A DNA stretch of 64,000 nt from Bdellovibrio sp. BCCA (GTDB lineage Bacteria > Bdellovibrionota > Bdellovibrionia > Bdellovibrionales > Bdellovibrionaceae), in assembly GCF_037996825.1 (NCBI RefSeq), contig NZ_JBBNAC010000001.1, positions 1,860,001 to 1,924,000 on the forward strand, in the 5' to 3' direction. Shown here piece after piece: positions 20,377-28,172 of the stretch (position 1 is the stretch's first letter; each line of letters begins with the position of its first letter). The position numbers were made by a program, and so were the translations under genes. Below the pieces are notes generated by a model that saw only the letters and a program-made list of their open reading frames with translations, was not told where the DNA came from and did not search any database.

Positions 20377-22353
20377 TTATTCGACGGTGCCTAAGCGAAT
20401 TTCCGCATCAAGCACGATATAGAGCTGAGCACTTTCGCCTAAACTCCACTGCAAATCATAAAGTTCGCTTTGACGAGGATACTGTTGAATCAAGTTCAGA
20501 ATCACTTGTTGAGCTCGGACTTGCGCTGAACCTTGGAAAGATTTGTTTTGTTTGGCTCGAGGCTTTAAGGTCTCTGCGCGAAAGTTCCAAAGATTTAATT
20601 GGAATTGTTCGTAAGGATGTAAAGTTGAACTGACCTTAGTAGAAATTTCCGCGAACTTTTCTTGGGCTTCGACGAGGTCCTGGTAAGCCATCTCTTTTTG
20701 CCCCTGCATAATCAAGCGGGCCGCACGATACACTTTAATACGAGCCCACATGAAGTGATAAGGGAACTCGTAAACCTGGGATTCTTCCGCTGTGCGAGCC
20801 GCATTTTCTAAAAGTCCCAAGGTTCTATCAATACCTGCAATTGTTTTACTGTCGTTTTCATTCGAGAGATAAGCGCGGATGTAAGAACTCATCGAATCAT
20901 ACCAACGCGTTTTATTGGGATCTTCCCAAGCTTTTGTGACGCCGATGATTTCAACAGGTGTGGCGCCTTGGCTCAGTCTGAAACCAACAAAATGAGAACG
21001 GTTTGTCGGGTAAGTTTCTGGCAAACTCATCCACCATTCTTGACGACCTGGAACCATCACGTGTGTGGCTGCTGTATAAACTTTTGTTGTCGTACGACCG
21101 AAGCTGCGCGGACCTACCAGTTCATCTTGGTGTCCTGAAAGACGATTGATCACCCATTGATAATCAATGTGTCCCCAGTCCTCTTGTAAAGTGCGCGAGA
21201 CATGAGCAAGGCGGGCTCTGGTTTCTAAAGTTTTATTCAAACTGTATTCATAGCCCTCTTGACTGGTCGCATCGCCTAAGAAGTGATTACTCTGTCCTAA
21301 GAATTTATTTTTCGCACGGCGAGCGACGACAACGGTGTTTCCGCTTAATTCAATAGATGCGACTTCATCTGTTTTAGAATCTGAAATAAAGAAGGTCCAT
21401 GCGCCAAAGCCTTTTCTTGTTTTAATCATGGAGATAGCCTCATCCAAAGTGTGGGCTTTCATAATGATTGAATGAAGAAGGTAAGGAGCAATGTCTGATG
21501 TTCCAGACTCATAACGAATCTTTGTGCCTTCCGTTTGCAACTCGTGAAGACTTACGGAAAGTCCATAGTTATTAAATCCACTGATGCCACCGGCATAGTG
21601 CAGGCCTGCAGAGCCTAAGCCTACAGAAGTAATGCCATTTCTTTGTCTATTGATCACGACCACTTGTTCGGGCTCATAGAAGCCCAGAAGACCGGTATCA
21701 AAATTTCTTCCGTGAACGAGGGCTCCGTCCTTGGAACCGCTGGCAGAGGCACTAATCCCTGTGCATCCCATTTTAATAGAACGTAAGCCCTTTGCTAAAA
21801 TCTTAAAGGGTTTTAAAAGTGAATGTCCGATAAAATAAGGCGCGCAAGAGGCGAACACTTGTATTTTTCCCTTGCGTGGATTTTCACTGAGTTGTCTTTG
21901 CATGGCATCTGTGAAAATCGAAAACTCAACCATATAATTGGTCTCTTCAAAAGTTTTCCAATCGACAGGACTGCCGGCGTCTTTAAGACCCTTATAAAGA
22001 TTCTGCAAACCTGATTTGAAATCGTCAGAGACACTGGTGCGATAGTTGTCCATCACGCATCTTTTGATAAGCATGACCTGTTCACGCTCTTTGCCACTCA
22101 GCTCACCGAAGGCTTGATCTGCACGAGTTTGCACGCCTTTAAGAACGCCCTGCTCAATTTCATTGCGAAGAAAATAGCCATGATAGTAAGCCGTCTCTCC
22201 AAATCCGCCTTGCAGGTCCAGCACATGAATCGCTTTGCTGGTCCCTGAGGCTTGGCAAATAAAATGCCTTTGCCCGTGGAGTTCTTGCTTAAGAATACAG
22301 TCAGCCCATGACAAAGACGGAAGAAGCAAAAAAATAAAAAGGATGTGTTTCAT
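20377..22353 (-). CDS. Exported C45-type Ntn-hydrolase / acyltransferase
   Basis: A 658-residue protein with signal peptide MKHILFIFLLLPSLSWADC. The peptidase C45 (isopenicillin N acyltransferase-type) nucleophile region is MGCTGISASASGSKDGALVH, followed by GRNFD. Cys197 would become the N-terminal nucleophile after autocleavage. The hydrolase domain runs to about residue 430 (AGGISGFNNYGLSVS, SGNTVVVARRAKNKFLGQSN), followed by a helical C-terminal region. Family members form or break amide bonds between acyl groups and amino compounds. It is the last gene of an operon with LysE and GH3 homologues; both junctions are ATGA overlaps. A role in processing N-acyl amino acids is inferred from context. 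Confidence 0.8.
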   Translation of the reverse strand: MKHILFIFLLLPSLSWADCILKQELHGQRHFICQASGTSKAIHVLDLQGGFGETAYYHGYFLRNEIEQGVLKGVQTRADQAFGELSGKEREQVMLIKRCVMDNYRTSVSDDFKSGLQNLYKGLKDAGSPVDWKTFEETNYMVEFSIFTDAMQRQLSENPRKGKIQVFASCAPYFIGHSLLKPFKILAKGLRSIKMGCTGISASASGSKDGALVHGRNFDTGLLGFYEPEQVVVINRQRNGITSVGLGSAGLHYAGGISGFNNYGLSVSLHELQTEGTKIRYESGTSDIAPYLLHSIIMKAHTLDEAISMIKTRKGFGAWTFFISDSKTDEVASIELSGNTVVVARRAKNKFLGQSNHFLGDATSQEGYEYSLNKTLETRARLAHVSRTLQEDWGHIDYQWVINRLSGHQDELVGPRSFGRTTTKVYTAATHVMVPGRQEWWMSLPETYPTNRSHFVGFRLSQGATPVEIIGVTKAWEDPNKTRWYDSMSSYIRAYLSNENDSKTIAGIDRTLGLLENAARTAEESQVYEFPYHFMWARIKVYRAARLIMQGQKEMAYQDLVEAQEKFAEISTKVSSTLHPYEQFQLNLWNFRAETLKPRAKQNKSFQGSAQVRAQQVILNLIQQYPRQSELYDLQWSLGESAQLYIVLDAEIRLGTVE

Positions 22354-22937
22354 AATATCTCCAAAGACAGATAGACGGAAAAAGTTAGAAATCCAAAAGC
22401 CGCGACCATTTCGATTCTTCTAAGAACATTCTTTAAAGAACTCTGCAAAGAGCGAAGTGCCCAAAGAAGCGCAAAGAAAGTCACAAGGAAGGCCATAAAG
22501 TAAACCATCACTCCGGCAAACAAAGAAAAATGCCTGCTGTGGCTGATGTTGACGAAAAGTCCTGCGTAAATAAAAACCAAATGGAAATTTGAAAGAGTTA
22601 AAAGGAGACTGTTTTTAAAGCCTTGCTGTTGTTGCTGCAAAGGTTTCACTTCCTGATCTTTGTCTTTCAGTGAAGGAAAAAGAATTTTCCCGGAATAAAG
22701 AACAAGAGAAGCGACAGTCAGTCCCGTTAAAAGTGTTTTAAGCCAAGTAAGCTGCAAAAGCGGACTTTGCAGTAAAAGCAAAGCCAAGGTGATATAAAAA
22801 ATATCACCTAAAAGAAATCCCGCGATAGAACCCCAAGGCCAAGTGCGTTTGTTAATAAGACTGCGAATGATATTAAAACTCGCAGGACCCAAAGCAAAGG
22901 CGGAAAGAAATCCGACAAGGATCAACCACAAAATCAT
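22350..22937 (-). CDS. LysE/RhtB-family exporter
   Basis: A 195-residue inner-membrane protein with about six hydrophobic segments. The N-terminus LVGFLSAFALGPASFNIIRS carries the family's conserved G-PGP-like segment, here ALGPASF, followed by SIAGFLLGDIFYITLALLLL. Family members export amino acids and related small molecules. A Gln-rich loop (KPLQQQQQGFKN) lies in the middle. It overlaps GH3 upstream and the C45 gene downstream by four bases each, so all three are translationally coupled. The likely cargo is an amino acid or the conjugate made by its neighbours. Confidence 0.82.
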   Translation of the reverse strand: MILWLILVGFLSAFALGPASFNIIRSLINKRTWPWGSIAGFLLGDIFYITLALLLLQSPLLQLTWLKTLLTGLTVASLVLYSGKILFPSLKDKDQEVKPLQQQQQGFKNSLLLTLSNFHLVFIYAGLFVNISHSRHFSLFAGVMVYFMAFLVTFFALLWALRSLQSSLKNVLRRIEMVAAFGFLTFSVYLSLEIL

Positions 22938-24454
22938 TGGAGAACCTCGCCCTGACCGATGTGAGCGCGGATGAAATTTAAATATTCTTCCGCCGTTTCA
23001 AAAGTCGTTTTCATTTTGAACTGGCCACGGCTGCGGTTTTGTTCAAAGTATTTTTGCAAGTAATCAGCACTCATGAGGGTCACTTGCGCAGGACCTAGAA
23101 CTCCGACATCACGGCAGTCTTTGTAGTCGCCATTCAGTCTTTGCATTTCTTGCTCAAAAGTGTGCGCTAAAAGTTCCGTGTTCACTTCGCTGTGCGCAGG
23201 CACAAACAAAGTCCAAAGATAAGATGCTTTTCCGTCTTTCATTATCGGAGATAAAAAGAAATGGCGAAGATCGACGTTTGTGAGATTCTTTGTCGCTAAA
23301 TAACAATCTAGAATCTCATCATCACTGACTTTTTCTGCGGCTAAATTCATTCCGGTGCTTTTGCGGCCGACGAATTCAAATACCAAATCTCCTTGGTATT
23401 CTTCAAAGCAGATCACATCTTTCATGGAGTAATGAATAAACCCATTTGGTGCACCGATGTTAATATAATACGCAACGCCCATTTCAATTTCATGAAGACC
23501 TAAGTTCTTTTTTTCACCAACAACGGGCGTAAAAGAGTAAAGAAGATCGGGATTTAAAATATACCGTTGACGACCATTTTGATATTTTTCATAAGGAAGA
23601 CCAATAGCGGCTTCTGTGGCGGCATAAACGCCATAATAGTTCAGTTCATGACCCACAAGACGGTTGATGCGCTCTTGGTATTGCTTAATGGGTGTTGCGG
23701 CATAAATAAAAACTTTAAGATTAGGCCAGATCTCATTGATGTGTTGTTTTCCGGTTTTCTGTAAGATCGCCTCAAGGATACTGATGATATAAGTTGGAAT
23801 TCCGCTGACGACTTGAATGTCTTGTTCTAAGGATTCTTTGATAAGCATATCAATTTTGCGATCCCAATTGGAAATCGCCAATACTTCGCTGGAAGGAAAA
23901 GTATTTTTTGCCAAAGACTTTGGAACACGCGTGCTTAAGATTCCAGAAATATATCCAAATTTAATACCGTTTTGCGAGTACAAATAAGGATCAGAACCAA
24001 ACGTCAGGCGACCGACTTTAAGAAAATTAATATCAGGTTCTAATGTGCTGAGTTTGCTCGCAATGCGCTTTTGGGATTTTAAGAACATCTTAATCATTCG
24101 CTCGTTATAAGGAACGCGTTTACTGTCCTTACCTGAGGTTCCTGATGAAAGACCGCAGTGTTCAACGCTGTCTTTAAATAAGATGTTCTTGTGTCCTGCT
24201 GCGATCATATCAACATAAGGAGCATAGTCGTCATAACCATGCACGGGCACGTGGTTCACGAATTCTTCGTAGCTGCGAATATGGGACAGGCGAAGATCTT
24301 TGTGTAAACGGGTGCCTGAAAGATTTCTGCGCAGGCTTGCGTAGTTCTTTTCTTGTTTCGTTAAAAGATCGGCGCGCTTCACGCTTATATAGTTTGCATA
24401 AGTCTTTAAGTATTTTTGACCCAAGTTTTGTACGACAGAATCCATTGCGAACAT
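22934..24454 (-). CDS. GH3-family acyl-adenylating enzyme
   Basis: A 506-residue member of the GH3 family, whose plant members adenylate a carboxylic acid and conjugate it to an amino acid. Visible motifs are the phosphate loop CGLSSGTSGKDSKRVPYNE near residue 103, the second motif NYYGVYAATEAAIGLPYE near residue 275, and FVGRKSTGMNLAAEKVSDDE near residue 365. AAAGGAGAG precedes the ATG. It is the first gene of the GH3-lysE-C45 operon and is divergent from a TetR regulator. There is no signal peptide, so the reaction is cytoplasmic. Substrates are unknown; bacterial GH3 functions are poorly characterised. Confidence 0.85.
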   Translation of the reverse strand: MFAMDSVVQNLGQKYLKTYANYISVKRADLLTKQEKNYASLRRNLSGTRLHKDLRLSHIRSYEEFVNHVPVHGYDDYAPYVDMIAAGHKNILFKDSVEHCGLSSGTSGKDSKRVPYNERMIKMFLKSQKRIASKLSTLEPDINFLKVGRLTFGSDPYLYSQNGIKFGYISGILSTRVPKSLAKNTFPSSEVLAISNWDRKIDMLIKESLEQDIQVVSGIPTYIISILEAILQKTGKQHINEIWPNLKVFIYAATPIKQYQERINRLVGHELNYYGVYAATEAAIGLPYEKYQNGRQRYILNPDLLYSFTPVVGEKKNLGLHEIEMGVAYYINIGAPNGFIHYSMKDVICFEEYQGDLVFEFVGRKSTGMNLAAEKVSDDEILDCYLATKNLTNVDLRHFFLSPIMKDGKASYLWTLFVPAHSEVNTELLAHTFEQEMQRLNGDYKDCRDVGVLGPAQVTLMSADYLQKYFEQNRSRGQFKMKTTFETAEEYLNFIRAHIGQGEVLQ

Positions 24455-24515
24455 AAAACTCTCCTTTGTTTTGATGAAGGTAATCTATTTGAGTTTAGGT
24501 CCTATGTCGCGGAAT

Positions 24516-24588
24516 CGAGTTGACAGGAAAGGGGCAAATCTGTCGAAAACTCGATCTTCCATTGACACTTTTCCAGGGTTTTTGTCAA
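24516..24588. promoter_or_regulatory. Divergent promoter region with TTGACA-containing dyads
   Basis: Between the GH3 and TetR starts are two dyads. CGAGTTGACAG (24516-24526) faces CTGTCGAAAACTCG (24540-24553), and TTGACA (24562-24567) faces TGTCAA (24583-24588). TetR regulators often bind such dyads and repress both divergent genes. Autoregulation and control of the GH3 operon are inferred. Confidence 0.4.
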
Positions 24589-24597
24589 AATTGCGGT

Positions 24598-25095
24598 ATG
24601 GCAACTCAGTCTAAAGAAGATATTTATTTTGCTGTCTGTAACGCGATTCTAAAGATGGAAGTTGCAAAAGGCCACTTGAAGTGGACTTTAACGGATATCT
24701 CCCGCGAATCCGGGATCACGCGATCGTTGATTTATTATTACTTCGGAAAAGAAAAGAAATCAGCCTTGCAAGAGGCTTACAAATTTGTGCTTTCAAATTT
24801 CTTTAATATCGAGCGCACAAAATCCATGGGAATCCGTGAACGTCTTAAAAAAGTTCTCGAAGACGTAAAAAAGATGCCTTATCTTTTCGTTCTTTATTAT
24901 CTCGAAAGAAATACAGGCGGGGAGATCGGATTGATGATCCGCGAGGCTGAAGGCATGTTGCTGCAGGCTTTGAAAAAAGAATTTCCAAAGCTCAACGACA
25001 ATCAAATCTTAGAAATCTATTTAAAAGAATTAGGAGCGATCACGTTCCAGCTTCCGCCGGAACGCGTGAAGGATCTTTTCGCAGATCATCTTTAG
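24598..25095 (+). CDS. TetR-family transcriptional regulator
   Basis: A 165-residue regulator. The N-terminal helix-turn-helix reads LKWTLTDISRESGITRSLIY, followed by YYFGKEKKSALQEA, which is typical of TetR. The ligand-binding part is all-helical, with no cysteines after the start. The ATG at 24598 (MATQSKEDIYF) is preferred; the frame is open from a TTG at 24520 but would run through the dyad region. It is divergent from the GH3 operon, the likely target, and convergent (4-base overlap) with the RND-LolA fusion gene. Confidence 0.85.
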   Translation: MATQSKEDIYFAVCNAILKMEVAKGHLKWTLTDISRESGITRSLIYYYFGKEKKSALQEAYKFVLSNFFNIERTKSMGIRERLKKVLEDVKKMPYLFVLYYLERNTGGEIGLMIREAEGMLLQALKKEFPKLNDNQILEIYLKELGAITFQLPPERVKDLFADHL

Positions 25096-25874
25096 TCTTC
25101 AGCCAAAGCCTTTGGTGTAAAGCGGCTGGATTTTATGTTTTGATCAATTTTCACCTGAGAAATAGTAATTTCAGTTCCGCGCTTGTTTTGCACGTTGCGG
25201 ATTTTAATTTTTCCCGCACGCCATTTTGTCGGGGATACTTTTTTGTAGCCCGTGATATCTAGAACTTTTAAAAGTTTTCCTTGCTTATCAAAACATTCAG
25301 CTTTTACAGGAAGATAGTCGCTCGCAGCAACGTAGCTTACGATTTTTGAATAGTTCGCCGATGTGGAATTCACATCGCTCTCAATCAAATAATACTTCTT
25401 CCCTTTGACTTCGATTTCTTTTTTTAAAGCATTCTGAGCACCTTGCTCACGGTTAAAATCGAAATCCTCAACACTGAGTTCAGAACCAAGAATGCCGCCT
25501 TGGCCGCTTTCGCCAGTCAATCTTCGTGTTTGTTTAGTAGATGGCAGATAAATCCACTTGTCTTCTTGTTCGCCTTTCAGAGTGGCAAGCAGGGCCGTGC
25601 CTTTAAGATCTTGCGGCTTTTGCATGCGCACCAAAAGATAGTGTTCTTTTTTTTCGGGACTCAACCTCCAAATACGCATCTGACGATCCTTGCTTGAACC
25701 GTCGGCTTCAATGATTTTCATATTCACAACGAACTCTTCATCATGAGAACGCAAGCGACTGCTCATCTCCTCGCCAATTTTTTGCACCGAAGGAGCTGCT
25801 GTTGCTTCGGCTTGAACAAAGCGCGGTGCAAATGAAATCACAAGAACAAGAACAAATGAAGACGCTATAGCCAT
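25092..25874 (-). CDS. Nested LolA-like protein with its own ribosome binding site
   Basis: Inside the fusion gene AAAAAGGAGAAAGTT precedes an in-frame ATG at 25874. The 260 codons from there encode MAIASSFVLVLVISFAPRFV, a signal peptide ending near QAEA, and then the complete LolA-like domain. This is what a separate gene would look like if the upstream RND gene had lost its stop codon. A free periplasmic form may be made in addition to the fusion. Both routes place the domain in the periplasm. Confidence 0.6.
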   Translation of the reverse strand: MAIASSFVLVLVISFAPRFVQAEATAAPSVQKIGEEMSSRLRSHDEEFVVNMKIIEADGSSKDRQMRIWRLSPEKKEHYLLVRMQKPQDLKGTALLATLKGEQEDKWIYLPSTKQTRRLTGESGQGGILGSELSVEDFDFNREQGAQNALKKEIEVKGKKYYLIESDVNSTSANYSKIVSYVAASDYLPVKAECFDKQGKLLKVLDITGYKKVSPTKWRAGKIKIRNVQNKRGTEITISQVKIDQNIKSSRFTPKALAED

Positions 25875-28172
25875 AACTTTCTCCTTTTTCCACGGTACTG
25901 AAGTCAAGAGCCACGGGCAACTTTTCAAGAGTGTTGGGAGAAGAATCAAATCTCCGACAAGACCAGCCAGCATCGACAAAAGCATGTAGAAGCCAAAGAT
26001 GCGATTCATGGCAAAATAAGACGCCATAAACACGGAGAATCCTGCGAGAAGGGTTAGGCTTGATATCAAACAAGGATTTCCTTCACGCCACAATGTTTTT
26101 TCGATCTCAAGATTTTTTGATTTCGAGGCCTTTTGGATCAGGCGCAGCCTCTCTAAAAGATAAACCGTGTTGTTAAACGCCAATCCCAAGGCGATTGAAA
26201 AGATAATCGCAACACTCGGCTTAATCGGTGTCTGTGAAATCGCAAGAAACCCTAAAAGAGCTGCGGGGGGAACTAAATTTGGAATACAAGCCACCAGGGC
26301 CCAGCGCAAAGATCTAAAGACAAAAACTAAAACCAAACAAATAGCTGCCATTGATTGCCAGAAACCAAAGATCAATTCATGGGAAAGTTCATTGTTTAAA
26401 TGATGAATGGTTGAGCCCATTCCGGTCACTTCCACTGTCATCTGCGGAAAACTGTTTTGCGTAATAGATTTGATGTTCGCAACCAATGAGTGAAGCTCAT
26501 TAGCTGGCAAATCGCGCGTTCGCACGGAAACCCGTGTATTGGAAGAATCCGTATTTAAAAAGTTCTTTAAAGGACTGTTGTTGGAAAGCGAATACAAAAA
26601 GAAAATCTCCGCCGTTGAAGAACGGCTCGCCGGAAGACGAGAGTGATGGAGGTTGGCGGCAGCCACCAAGTCCGGAAGGCCCACGACGCTGCCAACACCA
26701 TTGAGTGCGCGAATATCACTTAAGAGTTGATCAAGCTTTGCTAAAAGCTTTGGATCATTCCATACATCGGCAGCCCCTTTGATTTCAATATCAACCGGGA
26801 TCATGCCACCGAGTTCTTTATCAATCGTCTCCGTCGATAAACGCACCTGATGATTTGTTGGAAGATCATCAAAAAGACGGGCAGACCATGAAAGGCTTTG
26901 TCCTTTCAAGGCTAAACCTGAACACACAAGAATAATTAAGAACGCCCACACACCGGATCTTCTAAAAAGATACAAAGCCCAACGCGCCTTACTCCACGCC
27001 CATTCGCGTGCGCGTGGTCCAGGCAGGAAATGCAAAAGAGGAAAGAGAAGAGCTGTCGTTGCAATCCAACCAATGATAATAGCCATGGCCGCCGTTAAAC
27101 CGTAATCGCGGATTAAGGGTACCTTCACAGTGAGCAAAGCCAAGAAACCAATCATCGTTGTTGTTGAGGCAAAGAAGTTCGGCCCTAACAGAGTTTTAAA
27201 AGTATAGTTCACCAATTGATGGTGACTTAGATGCGGTTGATTTTTTCTTTCTTCCGTAAACCTTAAAAGCGTGTGAATACATAAAGACACGACATCCACA
27301 GTCGTCAAAATAGGAATCGTGCTGGAAAGAATTGAGAACGGATATCCGGCAAGCGCCATCACCGCAAGCACCATGATGTTCGCGCAAATAATCACAATAA
27401 ATGAAATGATCAGAGGCGACCAGTTCGCAAAGATAAGACCTAAGACTAAAAAGCATGCGATAAACCCTAGAACCACGAAGTTGCGAATTTCGGTTTGCAA
27501 AAGAACGCCGACATCTGTTTGTACAGCCGGAGTTCCGCCGATTTCAACGTGAGAAAATGGCACGGAGGCACTGGCTGTCACAGCCAAGTTTTGGCGAAGA
27601 TGCAAGAGCTCTTGCGTATTCAGAGGCTGGATGTTCACAATGATCGAAGCCGTTTTTCCGTCTTTAGAAATCAGTGTCGGAGAAATTAAAGGATTGTTCA
27701 AAGTTTCAGACTGCCATTTTTCTGTAGGTAAACTTTGCAGAAGCGGTCCCACACTTAGACCATGGTCACTATTTATTGCACCCTGAACGGTCGCCAAACT
27801 CAGAGTGTTTTTCACTCCTGGGAAGTGCGCAAGAAGATCTGTGAGCCTTTCTAAGCTTTGAATCTTTTCTTTTTGAAACCAGGTCTCGCTCTCGGAAGGA
27901 ATTTTTGCTGTAATGATGAACGGTTGCGAGTCAGAAAGCTGAAACAGCTGTCGTGTGTGTTCATCCCTCTTCAATAGCGGATTATCCTGGGGAAGAAACT
28001 GTTTTAAACTGTACTGCGTCTGTAATTTTGGGAGAGCGAAAAGTCCTAGGACTGTAAGAACGAAAACTACAAGTAGAGAGGAAATGGAAATTCTTTTGAC
28101 GGAATTTGGAAAATTAGAATTTTCAGTTTTCTTTTTCTTCATGCGTATGTCTTCTTTCGATTCTTGTTGCAC
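25092..28172 (-). CDS. RND/MMPL transporter fused to a LolA-like lipoprotein-sorting domain
   Basis: A 1026-residue protein. Residues ~25-765 form an MMPL-type RND exporter with two large periplasmic loops and about 12 membrane segments (VLGFIACFLVLGLIFANWSP, GFWQSMAAICLVLVFVFRSL, SSLTLLAGFSVFMASYFAMN). Residues ~767-1026 form an outer-membrane lipoprotein-sorting (LolA-like) domain with KGEQEDKWIYLPSTKQTRRL, GSELSVEDFDF and SYVAASDYLPVKAECFDKQG. The joint carries a signal-peptide-like segment. In other genomes these are usually separate neighbouring genes. The start may be GTG at 28172 (AAAGGAT upstream) or ATG at 28142. It is divergent from a large exported protein. It likely moves lipid-like cargo to the outer membrane. 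Confidence 0.85.
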   Translation of the reverse strand: MQQESKEDIRMKKKKTENSNFPNSVKRISISSLLVVFVLTVLGLFALPKLQTQYSLKQFLPQDNPLLKRDEHTRQLFQLSDSQPFIITAKIPSESETWFQKEKIQSLERLTDLLAHFPGVKNTLSLATVQGAINSDHGLSVGPLLQSLPTEKWQSETLNNPLISPTLISKDGKTASIIVNIQPLNTQELLHLRQNLAVTASASVPFSHVEIGGTPAVQTDVGVLLQTEIRNFVVLGFIACFLVLGLIFANWSPLIISFIVIICANIMVLAVMALAGYPFSILSSTIPILTTVDVVSLCIHTLLRFTEERKNQPHLSHHQLVNYTFKTLLGPNFFASTTTMIGFLALLTVKVPLIRDYGLTAAMAIIIGWIATTALLFPLLHFLPGPRAREWAWSKARWALYLFRRSGVWAFLIILVCSGLALKGQSLSWSARLFDDLPTNHQVRLSTETIDKELGGMIPVDIEIKGAADVWNDPKLLAKLDQLLSDIRALNGVGSVVGLPDLVAAANLHHSRLPASRSSTAEIFFLYSLSNNSPLKNFLNTDSSNTRVSVRTRDLPANELHSLVANIKSITQNSFPQMTVEVTGMGSTIHHLNNELSHELIFGFWQSMAAICLVLVFVFRSLRWALVACIPNLVPPAALLGFLAISQTPIKPSVAIIFSIALGLAFNNTVYLLERLRLIQKASKSKNLEIEKTLWREGNPCLISSLTLLAGFSVFMASYFAMNRIFGFYMLLSMLAGLVGDLILLPTLLKSCPWLLTSVPWKKEKVMAIASSFVLVLVISFAPRFVQAEATAAPSVQKIGEEMSSRLRSHDEEFVVNMKIIEADGSSKDRQMRIWRLSPEKKEHYLLVRMQKPQDLKGTALLATLKGEQEDKWIYLPSTKQTRRLTGESGQGGILGSELSVEDFDFNREQGAQNALKKEIEVKGKKYYLIESDVNSTSANYSKIVSYVAASDYLPVKAECFDKQGKLLKVLDITGYKKVSPTKWRAGKIKIRNVQNKRGTEITISQVKIDQNIKSSRFTPKALAED

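What the first reader, a model, noticed from the sequence alone, without database searches (positions are those of the whole stretch)
20377..25095. GH3 + LysE + C45 hydrolase operon facing a TetR regulator
Three genes with ATGA overlaps encode a GH3-type acid-adenylating enzyme, a LysE exporter and an exported C45 Ntn-hydrolase/acyltransferase (Cys197). Known families suggest a chemistry of making, exporting and then cleaving or transferring acyl-amino acid amides across the membrane. A divergent TetR gene with dyads suggests inducible control. The combination could be an undescribed N-acyl-amino-acid (signal or metabolite) system. The pathway itself is inference.
Basis: partly seen in the sequence, partly recalled or inferred. 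Interest (0 to 1): 0.7.

Follow-up and report, generated by a model that had tools for sequence, protein, structure and literature searches.

The report
Four-gene acyl-amide export and processing unit
In Bdellovibrio and related bacteria, four genes that are kept, lost and moved together (a switch, an enzyme that probably joins an acid to an amino acid, a membrane exporter and a secreted enzyme that probably acts on the exported product) look like one undescribed chemical pathway across the cell membrane, whose product is not yet known.

Summary
TetR, GH3, LysE and C45 genes lie as described, with two ATGA overlaps; the only correction is the TetR start (ATG at 24598, not TTG at 24520). It is far more than chance. 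Over 369 genomes of the phylum, exactly the same 27 carry the GH3 and the C45 orthologue. A LysE-type gene adjoins in 24 and is fused in frame to C45 in a 25th. The unit sits in several different neighbourhoods and is cleanly absent from the same site in five related genomes. The local operator, TTGACA-N15-TGTC(A/G)AA, occurs twice in the 4.0-Mb genome, both times between TetR and GH3. It recurs next to the module in other families.

GH3 keeps its adenylation motifs and is nearest to OlsH, which makes N-acyl-ornithine. C45 folds like isopenicillin N acyltransferase, NAAA and acid ceramidase, with an invariant Cys197. Most likely the GH3 makes an N-acyl amino acid, LysE exports it, and the periplasmic C45 cleaves it or transfers its acyl group. 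Substrates and the final step are inferred.

The module is present in predator HD100 but absent from predators W and NC01, so it is accessory. I found no description of it in the papers searched.

The parts
22934..24454 (-). GH3-family acyl-amide synthetase, 506 aa; adenylation motifs 103-SSGTSGKDSK-112, 277-YAATE-281, 338-GFIHYSMKD-346, C-terminal K480
   Evidence: Pfam GH3; nearest NCBIfam OlsH 162 bits, below its cut-off of 620; model resembles plant GH3, Z ~22; S104, T280, E281, D346 and K480 invariant in 27 genomes
22350..22937 (-). LysE-type exporter, 195 aa, with a GP motif near the N-terminus; ATGA overlaps with both neighbours
   Evidence: Pfam LysE 1.4e-6; LysE-type genes at the same place in 24 of 27 genomes, fused to C45 in one more
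20377..22353 (-). Exported C45 Ntn-hydrolase/acyltransferase, 658 aa: signal peptide ~1-17, autoprocessing site G196-C197, GRNFD 215-219, N356, C-terminal helical domain ~479-649, invariant tail T-V-E 656-658
   Evidence: NCBIfam C45_proenzyme; model pLDDT 76; 2x1c Z 30.0, NAAA Z 25.2, acid ceramidase Z 24.4; invariants
24598..25095 (+). TetR-type regulator, 165 aa, divergent from GH3; probably leaderless mRNA
   Evidence: conserved start and HTH residues; adjacent in 24 of 27 genomes
24520..24547 (.). Operator copy 1, TTGACAGGAAAGGGGCAAATCTGTCGAA, just upstream of the GH3 promoter
24562..24589 (.). Operator copy 2, TTGACACTTTTCCAGGGTTTTTGTCAAA, covering the likely tetR core promoter
24482..24510 (-). 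Likely GH3-operon promoter: -35 GCGACA (24510-24505), 17-bp spacer, -10 TAGATT (24487-24482)
   Evidence: read from sequence; both hexamers largely kept in orthologues; no experiment

Best explanation
A TetR-controlled make-export-process module for an acyl-amide. (1) GH3 uses ATP to activate an acid, probably a fatty acid, as acyl-AMP and joins it to the amino group of an amino acid in the cytoplasm. (2) LysE carries the N-acyl amino acid, or flips its head group, out of the cytoplasm. (3) The C45 enzyme, exported by Sec and self-cleaved at Gly196-Cys197, attacks the amide with Cys197, forms an acyl-enzyme, and passes the acyl group to water or to another acceptor. (4) TetR, released by an inducer, controls its own gene and the operon through two operators. 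Shown here by computation: that the genes form one unit, the fold and catalytic residues of both enzymes, and a unique conserved operator-like element. Inferred: the substrates, transport direction, TetR binding, and hydrolysis versus transfer.
For: Identical 27-genome sets for GH3 (>=326 bits, next 201) and C45 (>=387 bits, next 276) among 369 genomes. Same gene order in Bdellovibrio, two further lineages of its order and a Bacteriovoracaceae-type family, in different neighbourhoods. LysE-C45 fusion protein of 811 aa in G336, LysE part 7e-26. Clean empty site in five genomes. The operator occurs only at this locus in the genome. GH3 motifs match those of OlsH and plant GH3 (PMC12493201). C45 fold relatives are N-acyl-amide enzymes. 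GH3 and C45 distances co-vary, r = 0.98.
Against: The GH3 falls far below the OlsH cut-off, so its substrates may differ. Known LysE exporters carry small amino acids (own knowledge), which fits long-chain N-acyl amino acids poorly. G361 has GH3-C45 without an adjacent LysE, and in G017 and G364 the unit is split. Nothing shows that C45 acts on the product of GH3. The r = 0.98 partly reflects common descent.
Confidence: 0.58

Rival explanations
1. Membrane aminolipid synthesis like OlsH/OlsI: GH3 makes the lyso-lipid (N-acyl amino acid), LysE flips it, and C45 adds the second acyl chain in the periplasm, taking it from phospholipids.
For: Nearest characterised GH3 is OlsH; in the OlsH/OlsI pathway a hydrolase-fold protein is the O-acyltransferase (PMC12493201). 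C45 includes a true acyltransferase, the isopenicillin N enzyme.
Against: OlsI is an alpha/beta-hydrolase, not C45. OlsH/OlsI was described without an exporter. Known C45 enzymes form or cleave amides, not esters (own knowledge).
Confidence: 0.2
2. Inducible detoxification: GH3 conjugates a harmful organic acid to an amino acid, LysE expels the conjugate, and C45 cleaves it outside so that the amino acid can be recovered; TetR senses the acid.
For: A TetR gene next to an exporter gene is the usual layout of inducible efflux (own knowledge). Plant GH3 enzymes conjugate hormone acids (PMC12493201). Distribution is patchy, 14 of 24 genus genomes.
Against: Cleaving outside regenerates the harmful acid. 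C45 is the constant partner (27 of 27), more constant than LysE, which is odd if export is the point.
Confidence: 0.15
3. Neighbouring genes with separate functions that happen to be co-regulated.
For: GH3 and C45 are found apart in G017 and G364.
Against: Both are still retained there. 27 of 27 co-occurrence, a LysE-C45 fusion and movement as a block.
Confidence: 0.04

Closest known systems
OlsH/OlsI ornithine-lipid pathway of Singulisphaera acidiphila (PMC12493201)
   Same: A bacterial GH3 enzyme with the same three nucleotide-binding motifs joins fatty acid and amino acid; operon with a hydrolase-fold partner
   Different: Partners are an alpha/beta-hydrolase and a methyltransferase, with no LysE and no C45; OlsH model score 162 against cut-off 620
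Isopenicillin N acyltransferase (C45 type enzyme, 2x1c)
   Same: Fold over ~337 residues (Z 30.0), autoprocessing Gly-Cys, nucleophile Cys
   Different: Ours is exported and has an extra C-terminal helical domain and an invariant T-V/A-E tail
NAAA and acid ceramidase
   Same: Ntn amidase fold; Cys197 is the first aligned residue where their mature chains begin (Z 25.2 and 24.4 for the precursors)
   Different: Different family (C89, own knowledge); lysosomal, no link to GH3
Ebony/Tan cycle of insects (PMC10194958)
   Same: An amide-forming enzyme paired with a C45 enzyme that cleaves the amide again
   Different: Ebony is not GH3 (own knowledge); eukaryotic; no shared operon
Plant GH3 acyl-acid amido synthetases
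   Same: Fold and motifs
   Different: Low sequence identity (about 15% in the model alignments); substrates are hormones

Membership tests
GH3 acyl-acid amido synthetases | Pfam GH3 N-terminal domain over cut-off | tested here: met
   93 bits against 23.6
GH3 acyl-acid amido synthetases | Three nucleotide-binding motifs and catalytic serine (OlsH S115) | tested here: met
   S104, T106, K112, E281, D346 invariant in 27; motif 3 is divergent (K345 in place of G in most)
GH3 acyl-acid amido synthetases | ATP-dependent amide synthesis | not testable with these tools
   needs enzyme assay
OlsH (lyso-ornithine lipid synthetase) | NCBIfam NF052613 equivalog cut-off 620 bits | tested here: not met
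   162 bits
OlsH (lyso-ornithine lipid synthetase) | Operon with OlsI alpha/beta-hydrolase | tested here: not met
   partners are LysE and C45
C45 autoproteolytic acyltransferase/hydrolase | NCBIfam C45_proenzyme cut-off 85 bits | tested here: met
   94.1 bits
C45 autoproteolytic acyltransferase/hydrolase | Gly-Cys processing site and Ntn fold | tested here: met
   G196-C197 invariant; Z 30.0 to 2x1c
C45 autoproteolytic acyltransferase/hydrolase | Self-cleavage into two chains | not testable with these tools
   needs protein
LysE translocators | Pfam LysE over cut-off | tested here: met
   28.4 bits against 25.6; weak
LysE translocators | Amino-acid export | not testable with these tools
   needs transport assay
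TetR regulators | Pfam TetR_N over cut-off | tested here: inconclusive
   window protein 20.6 bits against 24; orthologue in L090 passes with 25.6
TetR regulators | Palindromic operator by its own promoter | tested here: met
   binding itself not tested

The most novel reading that the evidence does not exclude
The module is an acyl-group shuttle across the membrane: the N-acyl amino acid, made at the cost of ATP inside, serves as the energised acyl donor outside, and C45 transfers its acyl group to amines in the envelope where there is no ATP. In predatory members the acceptor could be prey peptidoglycan, which B. bacteriovorus 109J is reported to acylate with long-chain fatty acids (Thomashow and Rittenberg 1978, as cited in PMC7511926 and PMC10482364).
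Probability: 0.15. Interest if true: 0.85.

Novelty: new variant of a known kind. Interest (0 to 1): 0.58.

Why it matters
GH3 enzymes were known mainly from plant hormone biology until one was shown in 2025 to make N-acyl-ornithine in a planctomycete. Here a GH3 is tied to an exporter and a secreted Ntn-hydrolase in a regulated unit across several families of one phylum, including the model predator HD100. It predicts a definite class of compound and a clean genetic test. If C45 transfers rather than hydrolyses, it would be a way to power acylation outside the cytoplasm.

Tried and rejected
1) Viral contigs: no relative of the GH3. 2) Plasmids: seven remote GH3s (21-25% identity); the three neighbourhoods opened showed no listed LysE or C45, but two of those records carry almost no annotation; two remote C45s. 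3) Genome contigs: only Bdellovibrionota relatives, but the patterns were narrow and missed known family-f12 members, so absence elsewhere is not shown. 4) Wider regulon: extra exact operator matches in G145, G147, G361, G017, G188, G189, G096 and G364 lie by unrelated genes and are about as many as chance gives; rejected. The one by a PlsC-like gene in G361 is tempting but is a single case. 5) Essential for predation: rejected, because W and NC01 lack the module (PMC7137782). 6) Literature on the HD100 locus (just after Bd1984): no held paper mentions Bd1989-Bd1992; supplementary tables could not be read. 7) The MMPL gene as part of the unit: rejected, because the module occurs without it and it occurs without the module.

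Full report
What is there. The four genes are as described. On the - strand GH3 (22934-24454), LysE (22350-22937) and C45 (20377-22353) overlap by ATGA at both joints; TetR is divergent on the + strand. The TetR start should be ATG 24598, because the orthologues begin there and the stretch 24520-24597 is operator and promoter. Family searches give GH3 (2.5e-26), LysE (1.4e-6), AAT/C45 (1.5e-6) and a weak TetR_N.

It is a unit. Orthologues of the GH3 were found in 14 of 24 genomes of the genus and in two further lineages of the order; TetR-GH3-LysE-C45 is intact in 15 of those 16, the window included. In G011, G033 and G096 the unit stands in other neighbourhoods. In five genus members that lack it, the flanking genes (a solute-binding protein and an MMPL transporter) sit next to each other and the block is simply missing. 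In G017 GH3+TetR and C45 are on different contigs, yet both are kept.

Across the phylum. A C45 profile over 369 genomes gives 27 strong hits (>=387 bits, next 276); a GH3 profile gives 27 strong hits (>=326 bits, next 201); the two sets of genomes are identical. Relatedness makes a plain probability meaningless, but the set reaches four families besides the genus's own and shows losses in between. A family that includes Bacteriovoracaceae (L081-L087; L086 is the same contig as L049, titled Bacteriovoracaceae) has GH3-LysE-C45, with TetR behind it in five of seven. In family f28 the order is loosened: G360 and G364 keep a LysE gene behind GH3, G361 has none nearby. In G336 (family f26) the LysE is fused to C45 in one 811-aa frame that overlaps GH3 by ATGA: residues 1-178 match the LysE profiles (7e-26 and 1.9e-17), followed directly by C45. 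The fusion argues that LysE and C45 work on one substrate flow, with C45 on the outer side.

Regulation. TTGACA-N15-TGTC(A/G)AA occurs twice in the 4.01-Mb genome, both in the TetR-GH3 gap, 42 bp apart; the reversed control has none. About 0.2 are expected by base count (my estimate). The element is conserved down to ~50% identical relatives and stands by the module in 19 of 21 module genomes searched (not G364 or G336), against one stray site in six genomes without the module. In G360 it lies in front of C45, which is transcribed apart there. Copy 2 covers the likely tetR promoter, and tetR appears leaderless. A likely GH3 promoter (-35 GCGACA, -10 TAGATT) lies between copy 1 and GH3. TetR binding itself is inferred.

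Enzymes. In 27 GH3s the residues equivalent to the OlsH motifs are kept: S104 (OlsH S115, needed for activity, PMC12493201), T106, K112, T280, E281, D346, and the C-terminal K480. The GH3 model is poor (pLDDT 66) but its best solved matches are plant GH3 enzymes (Z ~22). The C45 model (pLDDT 76) matches isopenicillin N acyltransferase at Z 30.0, NAAA at 25.2 and acid ceramidase at 24.4. Cys197, R216, N217, D219 and N356 are invariant. C45 has a signal peptide by eye, a C-terminal helical domain not covered by these matches, and a tail T-V/A-E that is the same in all 27 while the preceding stretch varies. The tail is unexplained.

Mechanism. The economical reading is: make an acyl-amide inside with ATP, export it, process it outside. 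GH3 as amide synthetase: about 0.85. LysE as exporter of that amide: about 0.6. C45 acting on it in the periplasm: about 0.65. Fatty acid plus amino acid as partners: about 0.45. Hydrolysis or transfer: even. These are judgements, not results.

Biology. G006 has exactly the length of HD100 and G002 that of Tiberius (PMC3539863), so both predators carry the module; in HD100 it follows the ribonucleotide reductase gene (Bd1984, PMC12546842). G013 and G005 have the lengths of W and NC01 (PMC7137782) and lack it. It is therefore not required for predation. The link to prey-wall acylation is a speculation kept as the novel case.

Novelty. The parts are known families; the combination, its operator and its fusion form were not found in the papers searched (the query failed). 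Presence outside the phylum was not adequately tested.

Noticed in passing
window 20377-20400 (C45 C-terminus), and L081-L098: All 27 GH3-partnered C45 proteins end in T-V/A-E; remoter C45 relatives without GH3 often end in a similar acidic [ST]-x-[DE]. Function unknown.
   Followed up: partly
window 25092-28172: An MMPL/RND transporter fused at its C-terminus to a LolA-like lipoprotein-sorting domain in one 1026-aa protein; convergent with and overlapping tetR by 4 bp.
   Followed up: no
L042 9324-10880 (G000:C1 near 3,600,383): A second, distant GH3 in the same genome lies in a different cluster with a fatty-acid desaturase-like and a Rieske-type oxygenase-like gene.
   Followed up: no
L039, L040 and L041: Other GH3 subfamilies in the order sit next to a 633-aa ketosynthase-like gene (L039, L040) or in a cluster with PlsC-like, thioesterase-like and desaturase-like genes (L041), suggesting further lipid pathways (functions by eye).
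   Followed up: no
L127 near 4761 (G361:C17:66260): A perfect operator-like palindrome lies between an alpha/beta-hydrolase gene and a PlsC-like acyltransferase gene; at chance level alone, but a candidate extra target.
   Followed up: partly
window 24562-24600: The tetR gene appears to be transcribed without a leader: the likely -10 box ends about 7 bp before the ATG, and the arrangement is conserved in the genus.
   Followed up: partly
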